Source: Hygrocybe punicea (lineage: Eukaryota; Basidiomycota; Agaricomycetes; Agaricales; Hygrophoraceae). From it: a stretch of 64,000 nucleotides of DNA. The DNA lies in the NCBI GenBank assembly GCA_963556145.1, contig OY744463.1, positions 3,162,001-3,226,000 of the forward strand. Direction: 5' to 3'. Below are positions 39,310 through 46,540 of the stretch, piece after piece. The translations under genes were made by a program, and so were the position numbers. Under the pieces are notes generated by a model. The model did no database searches and was not told the origin of the DNA. It saw nothing but the letters and a program-made list of their open reading frames with translations. Within the stretch, counting starts at the first letter, position 1; the number at the start of each line of letters is the position of its first letter.

Positions 39310-39602
39310 CTCAGAGCTAGTGTTGCCGCGGCTATGGCTAATAGCCGGCTTCTACCTGTAGCCGAGCTGCCACATTGGCTCGGCTTGTGAGTGGCTTGGC
39401 TCAGCTAGAAACCAGCTACAGCTGCAGCTATTGCATTTCCTGTAGCCGTTAGCTGTGGCTATCGAGCTGACTAGCCGGTACCATCCTCGTCATATTCTTT
39501 GTACCCACTCAATTTAAATGATATATATCTACGTAGGATCTACATAGGAATGCGATTTTGTGCTAGGTAATTTTGGAACTGAGTTTAAATCCTGTGCTGG
39601 CT

Positions 39603-39660
39603 GGGATTGATTGCCTTTGAATTGATTGCCTTTGAATTGACTGCCTTTGAATTGACTTTG
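39603..39660. repeat. 15-bp tandem repeat in the left subterminal region
   Basis: The unit ATTGATTGCCTTTGA is repeated about 3.7 times with T-to-C changes in later copies (ATTGACTGCCTTTGA). It is inside the hAT, between the terminal array and the first open frame. Confidence 0.75.
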
Positions 39661-39813
39661 AACTGACTACCAGTAGACGGAATTTTAGGTAATCCTTTCT
39701 TGCATTAAGTCCCCTCTTTCTCCGCACACTGCTTGCCACTAATTGTAAGTACTTACTTCCAACTCCATCATCGTCACCATCCACTGGCCCCGCTCATCAC
39801 ATACACCGTGTGC

Positions 39814-40645
39814 ATGTTTGTGCACAAGCAGCACGACGGCAGTCCCAACTACCACTGGCAGGAGAAGAGTCTCTCAGTGTCCTCATCAATCGAGATCATC
39901 CTCTCACCCAGCGTTCAGACAACCAGGAATGACACAGACACAAGTGCCGCCTCCCAAGCAATCTGCAGGCCCACGAGGGAAGCAACATGTCCCAAACCTC
40001 TGGTAAGTCACCAGAAGCTCACACCAATTCAATAAAAAGCGCATTTACCCGCCCCTTTCCACATTTATTCATAGTCGCAGATATATGGCCAGCCACTTGG
40101 CCTGGACTCACCGAGAATGAAAATGGAGGTAAAACGCTGCATTTCGCAACCAGAAAACTTGTCTCGTACGATTTCCGAAACCCACCTTTCCTCATCTATT
40201 GCAAAATTCACCAAGTCTGGCCTTGGCCATCTTCTCGCAGATCCTCAAATACTCGAGGATGGGACTATCTGCAATATTTTCGAAGGTGGACACGTCCATT
40301 TGGTCGGAACGAGGGATGCTGAAATGTACGTTGCAGCACCTAATGTCCTAGATAAATTTCATGGCTCTATCGTTACAGTTTCCCTGCGAATCAGTGCACA
40401 GCCCAGCACCAACCAATGGCGCCTCTGGCTGTATCTAATGCTTCGCCATATTGGGTGCGTACCGTACTGTTATTCTCTACCTGTCACTCAGATATATTGT
40501 ACAACAGCCGCAACATTTCCGCCATAAATGGACATTACTTTCTGCGGAACAGTCCGTTTTCTGTGAGAGCTTAGGGGGTCTAAAATCTAATTTTGGGTAC
40601 CCCCCTTGCCAACCCTCAAATATTGGAGGATGGGTCGGTTTGTAG
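39814..40645 (+). CDS. Unknown accessory protein of the hAT element
   Basis: A first exon (from about 39814, ending at the GT donor at 40003) joins in frame to an exon from 40075 after a 72-nt intron and reads SQIYGQPLGLDSPRMKMEV, TKSGLGHLLADPQILEDG, NIFEGGHVHLVGTRDAEMY and WRLWLYLMLRHIG. A second intron (about 40455-40490) leads to YIVQQPQHFRHKWTLLS and a stop at 40645. A second, diverged copy of the LADPQILEDG...IFEGGHVH segment follows in another frame (LANPQILEDG...IFAGGHIH, about 40607-40690), so the gene has an internal repeat and may be frameshifted at the C-run near 40600. I recognise no family. The start codon is uncertain. Confidence 0.4.
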
Positions 40646-41430
40646 CATCTTCGCAGGTGGGCACATCCATAAATTTGCATTGTCGAATTATGACCCAAAC
40701 CATCCTTTAGCAATATGAGAACAGCTCACTCTACAATGACAGATGTACACTCTCCATGCCACAATGACAGATTCTACGCTATCAGGATCAAGGGAACGGG
40801 GAGTGGGGGAGCGGGAGGGGAACAGTGAAGAGGGGAGGAACAGCGAAGGGGGGGGGGATAGGGAACTGTACAGCAATACATAGAATGATCACAAACGATG
40901 TCAATCGATAGGATTGAAAATGTAATTATAACTAGAAATATATGAAAGCAAAACCTTAGTGCCCTTGGTCAATTCTCGTTTGGGATGTAATTCACACTAA
41001 TTATTATATTTCACCATGAAAATGTCCAATTTTCACTGGGTTCATTGTTCGAAATGGTGCAAAGAATGGGTGCGGGACTCTGGACGTTCCTGCAACATGA
41101 AGACTGACATCAATTCTCGGAAGCGGGGGTGGGATTTCAGTAGGGGCCATAGCTATTAGATAATGATCAGATTATACAACTCAAAGCGCTTGAGGTTCAA
41201 GCACGTTCTAAGTGAGCATATGTCCGAATTTGGACATAAGCCCCCTACAGGCAGGCCAGACATACGACATGGGCCAACCAGGCTGGATACAGCCCGTCAG
41301 ACTGGTAAGGCCTGGATGATGGGTTCATATCCATTGACAGAACGTTAACCCACGACCTCAGGTGTGTGAACATGCCGGCTGTTATATTGTGCAAGGTGAG
41401 AATACTGTCTTCCAAGTTCCAACTGCCACA

Positions 41431-44400
41431 ATGGGCCGTCGAAATACTCGCCCACGACAGTCATCTCCACCTCCAACCTCTCCAGAGGAGTCTTCTGAGG
41501 GCTCACAGGTTGGCCATCGTGCAGCTTGCCAACCCAGGGATCGCCAGCCAAACTCTCAGACAGCTCCTGCTATACGCCCTCAGACCAGCAGCAACTCTCA
41601 GCCTGTTCGAACTCCTGCATCATCTCGGGGTGGCTCACGTCCACAAACTTCTCACGATATCAATCATTTTTTTCGGAAGACAAAGGGCGCACCAACTATC
41701 TGCACATTTTGCGAGTAAGTTGATGTTCTGTCTTCCAGTCCTCCCACTTATTGCTTTCAGGCGTAAACACACAGTTGACCCTAACTCCGTGACATGCAAC
41801 TGGTCTTTTTCAGCAAACACAGGCAACACCAGTCTCCGAGTCCATCTGGAAAGCATCCACAAGATTGAATACCTCCAATTGTGCGAAGCAAATGGATGGG
41901 TTATAATGCTTCCGAGGATGAGGAAAGAGGCTGCATCCATCATTGATGATGACAATCCTGGTGCATCCCAGGCCCGTGTACCCTTCTTGCAGAGTCGCTT
42001 AGTGAGCGCAATTGTGAATTTTGTTGTTGCCGACGATCAAGTATGTCGTGTACTACATCGATATTTTACCACTAACCATCTTACATTTTCAGTCCATCAA
42101 CGTTGTCGAGTGTCACGAATTCCGTGAACTCCTCCTACTGCTTCGAGAAAACTTGCAAGACAAGGATATCCCTCACCGCACCAAAATCCGTGAGGCTATT
42201 GTTACTGCATGGAAGTCATGGTTTATTGGCCTAAAGAAAGAGCTTGCGGTAAGTGTATCTGTGTAGTTGTGAAATACCGTATGACAGAGCTTATTTTTAG
42301 GAAGCTCCTGGCAAAATCAGCTGCACTGCTGATGTTTGGTCTGATAGTAACCGTCGTGGATACTTTGCTATAACGGGTCACTGGATTGCACGGGATAAGA
42401 CCACTCGATGGCTAGAACTCAAGCAAGCACTGCTTGCTTTCCATCGCCTCCGTGGCAGCCATGATGGGAAGGCAATGGCGATTGCTGCCCTTTCTCTTAT
42501 GGATCGCGCTGGCATCACAGCACAGGTACATGTTTCATTCTATAGCTATCTGCAATGGAGATACTGATAAGGGTCGGCAGATGGGCCACTGGACTCTTGA
42601 TTATGCATCAAACAATGCCACATTCATGCAGGAGTTTGCAATTCTACTTCAAATTCGTGACATTGACTTTGATGCAATTGACCGCCGGATTATGTGCTTC
42701 CCGCTGGAGTGGTCCCAAGGGACCTCTCGGGATTGGGGACGGAATCGCACGGAAAGGTCTGGGTGGATGGGATAGAGAACTGTCTACTACATCCAGAACT
42801 GGCTACTGACTAAGGTCCAGGTCACGTGACATGACAGGCACCACTACTACACCGCATATTGTTAACACATGTTGCCATCACGTCATCGACAGTTTGACTG
42901 ATATCGACTTGACTGAATCTGCTGAAGTGTCTGCTGGGCCACTGCCCCCTAGTTGGCCTGACCAGCAAACATTCGAAGATGCCGTAAAACGGGACCCTGT
43001 GGCACTGGGACGCAATATCGTGCACGTACTTCGAAGCTCTGGCCAAAGGCGTGATTTATTCGACGACATCATTTGCGACGGTAATGCCAAGGGTTGGTTC
43101 CAGGACGACAGCGACCCCCCTCAGGCCTATGCACTGCCATCAGTGCAGCTGCTGCGTGACATGGTTGTAAGATGGGACACCGTCTATTATATGATCAGGC
43201 GTCTGCAAGAAATGCACCCTGTAGGTCAATTAATTTCTGCTTTGATTCCGCTGACATGATTCAATTGATAGGCAATCGACCATTTCCTCTGTCTCCCGAT
43301 CAACAGGGACTTGATGAAGCACAAGATGACCGATATGGAATGGTCAGTGCTCGCCGATGTTGAGGTCATCCTAGAGGTAAGAGGCGGTTTAAAAATATTT
43401 GGCTTAGCCTAATAAAAGATTAGATCTCCCATCAAGTTCAACAAGTCATGTCAAGCGATGGGAATCCTATTCTCTCAGGCGCAATCCCTGCCTTTGAGAT
43501 GTTCATGACTGCATGGGAGAGGCTTGGCGAGCGCCATCCAAGACTTAAACCCTGGATCGATGTTGGTCTCAAGTGGGCAACCACCTACTATTCTCGAATG
43601 GATCTCACGACGGCCTACATCATCGCAATGGGTAAGTGACAAATGACTTCTGCATTGTTTGTTTTGATTGACAAGACTAGCCCTCAATCCATGTATCCGC
43701 ATGAGTTGGATTCAACAGCATTGGGATGAGAACTATGCGGCAAAGGCTGAACAAATTGTCAAGGAAACGGTAAGCTGTGGACAACGTTCCCTTAGCTTGT
43801 TACTAATGCAGTCATGGCTTAGATGATCAAATACTGCCAACGAGCCAAACCTAGAGCTCCCCCATCTACAATTGTGATACCAGCCAAACCAACTGCGGCT
43901 CCTGCATATACGCATCTGGCACAGAAGTACGGCTTAGCTGACATGCGGGTGGGAGCTTTGCGGGATGCTGAAGGCCAGACACTGGAACAGGAGTATCACT
44001 CATACGTTACTGCACCACTGTCCATCGAAGGGACTGATATTCTCAGGTTCTGGGAGGTATGTAATCTATCTAATTAGTAGATATTACTTACTGATATACG
44101 CCCCCATGCAATAGTTCAGCGAGTCAACACTACCGACATTTTACGCAATGTCTCTTGATTTTCTACCTATTCAAGCATCATCGGTACCTTCTGAACGTGT
44201 GTTCTCATCAAGCGCTGAGACAGATACAAAGAAGCGAAACCGCATCAGCCCAGTACTCATGGAGGCCTTACAGATGTTAAAGTTCGCTCTCAAGCGATCA
44301 TGTCTCAACTTCACCGAGCATTGGCTCACGCCGGAGTCAATGTTGCAAGAACAGGAATCTGAGCTTGGTAGAGATCTCCTTGCTGATCTGCTTAGGCTGG

Positions 44401-44459
44401 ACACGGAGGACGTTATCGATCAAATCATTCAGGTGACAGGTGACAATGATACGGCCTGA
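41431..44459 (+). CDS. hAT transposase, apparently intact (11 exons)
   Basis: Exons 41431-41714, 41761-42040, 42093-42248, 42301-42525, 42581-42708, 42821-43220, 43272-43376, 43424-43631, 43681-43769, 43823-44056 and 44115-44459 total 2454 nt, that is 817 residues without a stop. The N-terminus is Ser/Pro/Gln-rich, then a BED-type finger spans the first intron (CTFCERKHT... with a second Cys and two His in RVHLESIH). The RNase H-like core includes CTADVWSDSNRRGYFAITGHW (first Asp) and LDYASNNATFMQEF (second Asp). The C-terminus has the hAT dimerisation signature PSERVFSSSAETDTKKRNRI. It would cut and paste the enclosing element. No CpG-type nonsense mutations are seen, unlike the other elements here. 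Confidence 0.88.
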
Positions 44460-44817
44460 ACAGTCCTGGATCCCCAATCATTACTCGTGCTTTTTGTACT
44501 ATGTTCACCGTGTTCTCAATGCTCATGTAAATTTGTTTGCTCTGTAATCTACTGCCTTGTGGTTCTAGAATTCTGTGTTCACCATCAGTACGAGTACTCA
44601 CGTCAGTGGCCACAGCCACTTTTCCCACAACCCAACCTCAACTTCAAACGCCTCAACGCCTCAAAGGCCTCAACGTTCGTTCAACTTGTACCAAAGTTTT
44701 TTTTTCAATACATATCAGGTTTTTGTACACTGTGTGCCCCTTATCATAGATAGCATGAAAACCTGACTGACCATCGAATTGTGTCATCTACAGGTATCAC
44801 CACACTCTAGTCTGACG
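44460..44817. other. Spacer between transposase and kinase inside the hAT
   Basis: This 358-bp spacer has T-rich tracts around 44695-44710 and no convincing gene. It presumably holds the transposase 3' end and the kinase promoter. Confidence 0.4.
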
Positions 44818-46077
44818 ATGCCATTTACTACACGGCCATCTACTACACAGCCACGAAATGCGCTAGATTGTGTAGGAGGTCAATCGCGGCAGGGAGTGAA
44901 CATTGTTAGGGTTGGCGGCAGATTCAGAATAAAGGAGCGATTAGGCTCAGGGTCCTTTGGTTCGTATTGCTCTACTGTCGTCAATGACTCACTAGATTTC
45001 ATTTCAGGAATTGTCTACCTTGGAATCAACATCATAACCAAAGAGGAAGTTGCTATCAAGCTTGAGTCTGCTGATGTAATGCTACCTCAACTTCAACATG
45101 AATTCGAGGTGTACCAGAATCTCATCAGCAGCAGCATCCCCTCTGTTCATTGGTTTGGAACGGAATGTGACTACAATGCTCTTGTCCTTACTCGACTCAG
45201 TCCATCACTTGAAGATCTTTTCAATCGCTGCAACTGCAAGTTTAGCTTGAAGACGGTCCTACTTTTGGCAGACCAGATGGTATCTATCGTTACTGAGCTA
45301 AGTTAGCGTCATACTGCTAATTCTGCAATTTCATAGATCCCATGCATAGAGCATGTCCACTCTTCCCACTTCGTTCACCGTGACATCAAGCCTACCAACT
45401 TTTTGATTGGCACAGGTGCAAATTGCAGTCAAGCCTACATCATCGATTTCGGTCTTGCCAAAAGGTATAGAGATGCTGGGTCTCACATTCATATCCCATT
45501 TCGAGTGGACCATCGTACCCTCACAGGCACCACCCCATTCGCCTCACTCAACAGCCATTTAGGTGTGGAGCAGTCTCGCCGTGATGATCTAGAATCCCTT
45601 GCCTACATTCTTATCTATTTTCTTTGTGGCTCTCTTCCTTGGTATGATGCCAAGGCCTCAACCCGTAACCAGCGCAACAAGATCATGAAGATGAAGGTCG
45701 ATACGATTCCTGACCTTCTGACGGGAATTCCAAACGAATTCAGAATTTTTCTAGACTATACTCGTGCATTGGACTTCGAAGGCAAACCCAACTATGCATA
45801 TCTGCGCAAGCTCTTCCATGATCTTCGCATACACGAAGGACATGAAGACGATGACATTTTTGATTGGTGCCTGCCGATGATAAGTGCAGATGATCAGAAT
45901 CCCAACAATCACATGAGGATCAATGGGAAGATGCACTCCAGGGCGCATGATATGGATGCTGTCAGCAGCACGAGAGTGTTTGTCCATTTTTTTAATCTTC
46001 GAGTTATGTCTAATTGTGACTTGGACAGGCTGCGCTCTCACACTCGTCAGTCCCCATTGGGGGCTTCTGTCTTGTGA
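44818..46077 (+). CDS. Casein kinase 1-like protein kinase, hAT cargo (3 exons)
   Basis: Exons 44818-44959, 45008-45279 and 45337-46077 total 1155 nt, that is 384 residues. Kinase motifs are complete: glycine loop GSGSFG, catalytic Lys65 (VAIK), HRDIKPTN with Asp154, and DFG with Asp175. The CK1-specific feature is LTGTTPFASLNSHLG followed by SRRDDLESLAYIL, in place of the usual APE segment. CK1 enzymes phosphorylate acidic or primed Ser/Thr sites; the target here is unknown. The C-terminal ~90 residues after the kinase domain are unlike known CK1 tails. It lies between the hAT transposase and the right terminal repeat, same strand, so it moves with the element. It could be a captured host gene or a long-standing element gene that modifies the transposase. 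Confidence 0.88.
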
Positions 46078-46540
46078 CAACTCATTATCGCGCAGTGCCA
46101 GTCTGCCCATCATGCAACGTTGCAGTCACGATACGTCTCGAATACGGTTCATTCCTGGCTTTATACCCCTCTGATATCTCATACTTTATGGACCATTTTC
46201 ATGTAAACGACTTGCTGGCTAGTGTAATGGATCTTATGGCCATTTTTTGTAGTGTTGTAGTTTTTTTTTTTTTTCCTCCATAATTACAGCTATGGCCGGC
46301 CAGGAACTTTGGTTATAGCCGAAGCCATGGCTACGGTCACGGTTACTGTTGCCAAGTGTAGCCACAATATACAAATTAGCCGGTCTTGTATAACCAGCTC
46401 GCGGTTAACCGGGCCGCGGCAACACTACTCAGAGCGTGGGGGTAACGAAGGCTATCAGCTTGCCAACTTGATGAAGGTGTGTAAATTATAGCCGTTGAAC
46501 AAGGTCACGATCAGTGAGCAATCTGTAGACCGAAAATTGG

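What the first reader, a model, noticed from the sequence alone, without database searches (positions are those of the whole stretch)
39318..46427. hAT transposon with perfect target duplication carrying an intact casein-kinase-1 gene
Seen: 14-bp TIRs, exact 8-bp duplication CTCAGAGC on both sides, an 11-exon transposase whose exons sum to 818 whole codons, and between it and the right TIR a 3-exon kinase with all catalytic motifs (VAIK, HRDIKPTN, DFG). Known: hAT elements usually carry only a transposase; CK1 is a regulatory Ser/Thr kinase. Inference: the kinase is cargo moving with the element, and could phosphorylate the transposase or a host repair factor to set transposition timing. Gene capture as a passenger is the simpler alternative.
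Basis: partly seen in the sequence, partly recalled or inferred. Interest (0 to 1): 0.88.

Follow-up and report, generated by a model that had tools for sequence, protein, structure and literature searches.

The report
Jumping gene carrying a remodelled kinase
A family of mushroom jumping genes picked up a copy of a host regulatory enzyme (casein kinase 1) long ago and has kept its catalytic core while changing its substrate-binding surface, which suggests that the enzyme now does something for the jumping gene itself.

Summary
Window 39318-46427 is a hAT element with 14-bp inverted ends, a perfect 8-bp target duplication, a hAT transposase gene and a casein-kinase-1 (CK1) gene inside the right end. 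Two gene models need correcting: the kinase has four exons, and this copy's transposase carries a ~147-bp insert.

The kinase is not a one-off passenger. Three diverged families in this genome (A, B, C) share the order transposase, kinase, inverted end. Four kinase-bearing copies (three A, one B) have matching 8-bp duplications. Transposon-type kinases form one clade (94/88) within the agaricomycete HRR25/CK1-delta branch, share three intron positions with the host gene, and show purifying selection between lineages (omega 0.16-0.38).

Catalytic residues are mostly kept, but four positions invariant in 137 of 137 compared CK1s (D132, K171, R178, K224) are changed in 18 of 18 transposon-type kinases; three belong to CK1's anion sites. 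A kinase-free sister group with fresh target duplications exists, so the kinase is not required for movement.

Best reading: one old capture, kept as a retargeted accessory kinase. Its target (transposase, break repair or silencing) is inferred. Precedents are TET/JBP and alpha-kinase cargo in other fungal transposons.

The parts
39310..39317 (.). left copy of the 8-bp target-site duplication CTCAGAGC
39318..39331 (+). left terminal inverted repeat TAGTGTTGCCGCGG
41431..44459 (+). hAT transposase gene, 11 exons as modelled (41431-41714, 41761-42040, 42093-42248, 42301-42525, 42581-42756, 42821-43220, 43272-43376, 43424-43631, 43681-43769, 43823-44056, 44115-44459), 833 aa; Dimer_Tnp_hAT domain at residues 711-776
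42705..42851 (.). about 147 bp found only in this copy, inside the transposase gene; the exon 5/6 intron of the model lies in it
   Evidence: absent from L045 and L047, the two other A copies compared; ends ambiguous by a few bases
44818..46077 (+). CK1 (HRR25/CK1-delta type) kinase gene, 4 exons (44818-44959, 45008-45279, 45337-45977, 46029-46077), 367 aa
45978..46028 (+). third kinase intron, phase 2, at the position of the host HRR25-like gene's intron before LRSHTRQ
46414..46427 (-). right terminal inverted repeat TAGTGTTGCCGCGG
46428..46435 (.). right copy of the 8-bp target-site duplication CTCAGAGC

Best explanation
SHOWN by sequence: a hAT lineage carries, between its transposase and its right end, a CK1 gene of HRR25/CK1-delta descent that moves with it and still has three introns at the host positions. 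The gene persists in three diverged families with most catalytic residues kept, while positions of CK1's phosphate-recognition sites are changed. INFERRED: the gene was captured once, as genomic DNA, in the ancestor of families A, B and C and was then retargeted. It helps the element rather than being dead freight. It most likely phosphorylates the transposase or the host machinery that meets the excision break, so as to favour productive transposition and repair of the donor site. It is an accessory gene, not part of the cutting reaction, because a sister family without it also has fresh insertions. How likely: capture and retention about 0.85; kinase useful to the element about 0.7; target transposase or break repair about 0.45.
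For: Same order in A, B and C. Of 47 exact ends, 20 pair with a kinase in the expected geometry, 13 of them on the kinase side at 315-512 bp where 0.025 are expected. Duplications CTCAGAGC, ATTGATAG, ATCTACGA, CTTTTGAC around four kinase-bearing elements. One kinase clade 94/88 inside agaricomycete HRR25 97/96; transposase trees branch in the same order. Introns at the same positions and phases 1, 0, 2. Kinase omega 0.30 between C lineages (p 3e-11) and 0.16 for A against B. Catalytic residues kept but D132, K171, R178, K224 changed in 18 of 18, against 0 of 137. CK1 of this branch promotes end joining and homologous repair in fission yeast (PMC11583621, abstract). R178 and K224 are anion Site 1, K171 Site 2; R178C alters substrate choice (PMC7012598, passages).
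Against: Clade D moves without a kinase. The three nearest B pairs have omega 1.0-2.0, on 2-3 synonymous changes, and other close pairs 0.30-0.63. The C kinase is less constrained (0.30) than the C transposase (0.15). Several kinase copies are broken (L016; L015 one of whose three stops lies in the 3' intron), and some have lost catalytic residues (one HRD Asp, one DFG Asp, five HRD Arg of 18). Clade C has lost two glycines of the ATP loop. Clade support is under the 95/80 mark and branches are long. No expression, activity or target was tested.
Confidence: 0.6

Rival explanations
1. Anti-silencing cargo: the same captured kinase acts on host chromatin or silencing factors so that the element stays expressed, as is proposed for transposon-borne TET/JBP enzymes. 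It differs from the best explanation only in the target.
For: Fungal DNA transposons repeatedly captured an enzyme proposed to counter silencing (PMC12730594, abstract). The kinase is dispensable for movement itself (clade D).
Against: No CK1 link to silencing in these fungi was found or searched for here; the donor branch is documented for break repair.
Confidence: 0.2
2. Passenger: a host CK1 was swept into the element and is carried without use, decaying at its own pace.
For: A kinase-free sister moves. Several kinase copies are broken. Close copies show omega up to 2.0.
Against: Purifying selection between lineages; the gene sits in the same place in three families whose non-coding DNA no longer aligns apart from 168 bp at the left end; catalytic positions largely kept while others changed.
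Confidence: 0.12
3. Several independent captures of HRR25-type genes by A, B and C, with long-branch attraction making one clade.
For: Support 94/88 is not decisive; long branches (stem of C 1.8, Piloderma 1.03). The residues at D132, K171 and R178 differ between families.
Against: Same position and orientation in the element; same four positions changed in 18 of 18; kinase and transposase trees agree in order.
Confidence: 0.08
4. Host benefit: the copies serve the fungus as extra CK1 genes and selection is on the host.
For: Some kinase loci have no exact inverted end nearby.
Against: A typical separate HRR25-like gene is present (L021; next to Mycena venus 99/91). The copies are many, scattered and partly broken, and most loci without an exact end that were read have a near-match end.
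Confidence: 0.05

Closest known systems
TET/JBP-carrying fungal DNA transposons, among them hAT7 in rusts and Kyakuja/Zisupton in Agaricomycetes (Kojima 2025, PMC12730594; abstract and passages seen)
   Same: DNA transposons of fungi, one of them hAT, that carry a captured enzyme gene over several families; proposed to help the element
   Different: The cargo here is a protein kinase; 8-bp rather than 7-bp duplications; a different hAT lineage and fungal class from hAT7
IS3EU transposons of rusts with TET/JBP between transposase and an alpha-kinase gene (same paper, one passage seen)
   Same: DNA transposon with a kinase gene beside its transposase
   Different: Alpha-kinase, not CK1; another transposon superfamily; kinase in opposite orientation to the transposase there, same strand here
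Host HRR25/CK1-delta (hhp1) kinases
   Same: Same kinase branch, same three intron positions, catalytic core kept
   Different: The transposon kinases are changed at D132, K171, R178 and K224, invariant in the 137 others compared; many mobile copies
Clade D: kinase-free hAT elements of the same genome (L069, L070, L071)
   Same: Transposase matches of 43-56% identity, related ends, perfect 8-bp duplications
   Different: About 2.95-2.96 kb, intronless transposase, no kinase within 6 kb at any of 21 listed loci

Membership tests
hAT superfamily | 8-bp target-site duplication | tested here: met
   Window, two further A copies and one B copy; L040 and C2:436784-443703 have both ends but no match
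hAT superfamily | short terminal inverted repeats | tested here: met
   14 bp, exact on both sides; 47 genomic copies, control 0
hAT superfamily | C-terminal hAT dimerisation domain | tested here: met
   PF05699 E 1.1e-10, above its cut-off
hAT superfamily | BED-type zinc finger in the transposase | tested here: inconclusive
   No Pfam match at 0.001; Cys/His spacing near residues 92-131 looks like one, by eye
hAT superfamily | DDE-type catalytic triad in an RNase H fold | not tested
   Candidate motifs (TADVWSD, LDYASNN, SERVFSS) recognised by recall only; no fold was made
CK1 protein kinase family | sequence relation to CK1 above other kinases | tested here: met
   The listed best PDB matches are CK1; inside the HRR25 branch
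CK1 protein kinase family | catalytic Lys, Glu, HRD Asp, Asn, DFG Asp | tested here: met
   Lys, Glu, Asn 18 of 18; HRD Asp and DFG Asp 17 of 18 each; HRD Arg 13 of 18
CK1 protein kinase family | anion-binding Site 1 for phospho-primed substrates (R178, K224) | tested here: not met
   Changed in 18 of 18 transposon-type kinases; kept in 137 of 137 others and 3 of 3 host rows
TET/JBP or alpha-kinase cargo transposons | TET/JBP or alpha-kinase gene in the element | tested here: not met
   Kinase matches Pkinase; transposase matches only Dimer_Tnp_hAT; three further window ORFs without a match. Not every ORF was scanned

The most novel reading that the evidence does not exclude
A cut-and-paste transposon lineage took over a host DNA-repair kinase (HRR25/CK1-delta type), stripped it of phospho-primed substrate recognition, and has long used it to phosphorylate its own transposase or the host break-repair machinery: a transposon-encoded signalling enzyme that controls the fate of its own excision.
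Probability: 0.45. Interest if true: 0.87.

Novelty: new variant of a known kind. Interest (0 to 1): 0.7.

Why it matters
A DNA transposon that brings and keeps its own CK1 would be a direct handle on how mobile elements govern repair, timing or silencing. One genome holds a natural contrast, kinase-bearing A, B and C against the kinase-free sister D, which makes the question testable. The kinases are also a natural series of CK1 enzymes without R178, the residue of the circadian tau mutation.

Tried and rejected
Rejected or led nowhere: (1) Further cargo in the 5' part of the window element: ORFs 39933-40319, 40075-40524 and 41309-41758 gave no Pfam match above cut-off, and ORFs of that part showed no coding similarity to B or C beyond one weak minus-strand match to L046 near the left end. 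(2) A third gene in the C gap: only weak L040-L041 similarity and no Pfam match for the two ORFs scanned. (3) Apparent frameshifts in B and C transposases at DRAGIT/DRAGVT...GHFTLDN/GHWTLDN, and one more in L048, are unspliced introns. (4) IQ-TREE codon models: the runs gave trees and likelihoods but my script recovered no omega. Piloderma has a kinase (P0035) and transposases (P0125, P0127), on contigs of different lengths, so linkage is not shown. The second kinase search added no further transposon-type kinase to the 120 listed that I recognised; the proteins beyond the list were not seen. (6) Literature searches on hAT or transposons with CK1 or kinase: 0 papers; 6; 47, 20 listed; 2; 1; 26, 20 listed; 1, the Kojima paper; 2; listings only except where stated. 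None listed was seen to report a hAT with CK1; the library holds open-licence papers only.

Dropped before counts: P0001-P0004 and P0027 (double or fused domains), partial kinases L012, L014, L025, same-locus or identical copies L011, L018, L037, and the divergent CK1 L044; kinase loci listed but not fetched were not scored. The 137 others are the best-listed hits of two searches, so near relatives of canonical CK1. In one search I sorted the loci by hand from a listing that the tool had cut; A and D rest on identity and lack of introns, B and C partly on their kinases, so those rows are not independent.
Full report
What is there. The window element runs from 39318 to 46427 with exact 14-bp inverted ends and CTCAGAGC on both sides. 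The 14-mer occurs 47 times exactly in the 92.2-Mb genome, against 0 for the reversed control. Inside lie a transposase gene (833 aa as spliced, hAT dimerisation domain) and, on the same strand, a CK1 gene whose best solved-structure matches are CK1 proteins.

The kinase has four exons: the last intron is 45978-46028, and its position and phase match the host gene. Without it, sister copies L013, L015 and L016 would carry a TAG there. The transposase of this copy contains about 147 bp that L045 and L047 lack, and the 11-exon model includes an intron that only this copy needs.

Family anatomy. A genome search gave 97 kinase matches. Spliced alignment of 26 locus entries, some of them the same locus, sorted the kinases into A (window type), B, C and host-like CK1 genes (L021, L042, L043, L044). 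In A and B the transposase match ends 192-363 bp before the aligned kinase start where both were read, and an inverted end follows 315-558 bp after the aligned kinase end, exact or with 1-3 mismatches. In C the order is the same with 2.3-2.7 kb between the genes in the two elements read there; the end follows at 462-536 bp (exact), 693 or 1152 bp (3 mismatches), and none was recognised for L038. Of 47 exact ends, 20 pair with a kinase in the expected geometry, 13 on the kinase side at 315-512 bp where 0.025 are expected by chance; 27 do not pair. Of 16 unpaired ends looked into (15 fetched, plus L005), 6 begin short derivatives of 0.96-1.5 kb with 8-bp duplications (5 perfect, 1 at 7 of 8), L005 is a transposase without kinase, L057 a transposase end without kinase, and the other 8 are family ends, fragments or unresolved.

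Movement. Matching 8-bp duplications flank four kinase-bearing elements: the window, C1:6039327-6046285 (ATTGATAG), C1:1784010-1790941 (ATCTACGA; one end with one mismatch) and the B element C2:3075065-3085588 (CTTTTGAC). L040 (C) and the A copy C2:436784-443703 have both ends without a match. A copies are about 98% alike over the stretches compared, the whole element for L045, so A moved recently. Transposase (from about residue 143 of the window numbering) and kinase both read open in L040 with L036 and in L048 with L034. In A, L045 has three transposase stops and L047 one frameshift.

Kinase-free relatives. When the transposase search was at last answered it listed many intronless relatives, 43-56% identical in their pieces; the listing was cut by the tool. 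Three read in full are 2.95-2.96 kb, with TAGTGTTACCGCAA on the left and TAGTGTTGCCGCGA (read inwards) on the right and perfect 8-bp duplications. By my sorting a same-strand kinase lies within 5 kb downstream in 8 of 8 A, 6 of 6 B and 3 of 3 C loci, and in 0 of 21 D and 0 of 3 other loci; B and C were recognised partly by their kinases, so only A and D are independent. In the transposase tree D, L005 and metagenome P0122 form one side (91/97), and A, B, C with Piloderma, Amanita P0121 and Grifola the other (81/91); an earlier tree without D gave the kinase side only 43/89. The simplest reading is one gain in the second group; loss in the first is not excluded. Whether the Piloderma, Amanita and Grifola elements carry the kinase is unknown.

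Origin. The kinases A, B and C, with Piloderma P0035 and metagenome P0005, form one clade (94/88) inside the agaricomycete HRR25 branch (97/96). The order C, then B, then Piloderma with A is the same in the transposase trees, though several forks are weak. All three introns of the window kinase sit at host positions with phases 1, 0 and 2, so the gene was taken up as genomic DNA rather than as a reverse-transcribed message (inference).

Selection. Between the two main C lineages the kinase has dS 0.41, dN 0.12, omega 0.30 (L034-L036, p 3e-11); A against B gives dS 1.88, dN 0.29, omega 0.16. A against B at DNA level aligns only over parts of the two genes and 168 bp at the left end. Within families the signal is mixed: A pairs 0.30-0.57; B pairs 0.40-0.50 except three close pairs at 1.0, 1.0 and 2.0 on 2-3 synonymous changes; close C pairs 0.54-0.63 and distant C pairs 0.24-0.38. 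That is what drift after insertion on top of older constraint would give. The C transposase is more constrained (0.15) than the C kinase. Synonymous distance between C subfamilies falls along the element: 2.70 for the transposase N-terminal part read in L041, 1.05 over the transposase (L048), 0.76 for the part in L050, 0.41 in the kinase, which points to exchange of the right end between C subfamilies.

Retargeting. In an alignment of 16 transposon kinases of this genome, P0005, P0035, 3 host CK1s and 137 other CK1 proteins, the ATP lysine, alpha-C glutamate and catalytic-loop Asn are kept in 18 of 18 transposon-type kinases and the HRD and DFG aspartates in 17 of 18 each; the HRD arginine is kept in 13 of 18 and the DFG glycine in 16 of 18. 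Four positions that do not vary in the 137 are changed in all 18: D132, K171, R178 and K224 (numbers read off the CK1-delta rows; K224 falls in a gap in 12 of 18). K171 is Arg, still basic, in 4. Q214 and G215 are changed in A, B and P0005 but largely kept in C. R178 and K224 belong to anion Site 1 beside the active site, where a phosphorylated priming residue is thought to dock; K171 belongs to Site 2; R178C is the tau mutation, which changes substrate selectivity (PMC7012598, passages). Clade C has also lost the first and third glycines of the ATP loop in all six copies, and 2 of 5 B copies the third, so full activity is not assured. The pattern is that of a catalytic core kept while the classical primed-substrate pocket is given up.

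How it may work. Excision by a hAT transposase leaves a break that the host must repair (recalled knowledge of the family). CK1 of the same branch promotes end joining and homologous repair in fission yeast, with Arp8 as one substrate (PMC11583621, abstract). The window transposase has 20 Ser/Thr in its first 76 residues, a possible target but not a test. I therefore favour action on the transposase or on break repair, with anti-silencing as the main rival; sequence alone cannot decide.

Known or new. Fungal DNA transposons that carry captured enzymes are known: TET/JBP genes in eleven lineages including hAT7, and IS3EU elements with an alpha-kinase gene (PMC12730594, abstract and passages). 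I found no report of CK1 in a hAT in the searches named under Tried and rejected. I call it a new variant of a known kind.

Noticed in passing
C2:414-444 kb (L006, L007, L008, L045): Two near-identical A copies in opposite orientation have swapped flanks: ATGTGTAG beside one is the reverse complement of CTACACAT beside the other, as after an inversion between them.
   Followed up: partly
C35:78921 (L066) and C35:351965 (L013): The flank AGTCACAC occurs at an A left end and, inverted, at an A right end about 273 kb away, as if one element had been split by an inversion.
   Followed up: partly
C35:1062986-1071277 and C35:1205763-1214058: Two similarly rearranged A loci in which the kinase is split into a forward 5' part and an inverted 3' part.
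   Followed up: no
L036/L040 (C6:5.638 Mb) and L037 (C6:5.660 Mb): Inverted pair of C elements 99.7% alike over 2560 bp, with different flanks.
   Followed up: no
clade C: L040 against L048, L041, L050; kinases L034, L036: Synonymous distance falls from the left to the right of the element, so the kinase end may have been exchanged between subfamilies.
   Followed up: partly
L069, L070, L071 and other clade D loci: Abundant intronless, kinase-free hAT elements with fresh 8-bp duplications; how the transposase lost its introns is unexplained.
   Followed up: partly
L054, L055, L056, L060, L061, L064: Short derivatives of 0.96-1.5 kb with the same or similar ends and 8-bp duplications (5 perfect, L056 7 of 8).
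   Followed up: partly
L041 (C36:2966000-2975000): C element with only the first part of the transposase detected but a nearly complete kinase (one frameshift, DFG Asp changed).
   Followed up: no
protein P0001 (Dendrothele bispora, 657 aa): Annotated protein with two diverged CK1 domains in a row, placed just outside the transposon-type clade (98/96); origin unknown.
   Followed up: no
window 42705-42851: The copy-specific insert in the transposase is of unknown kind and was not searched for elsewhere in the genome.
   Followed up: no
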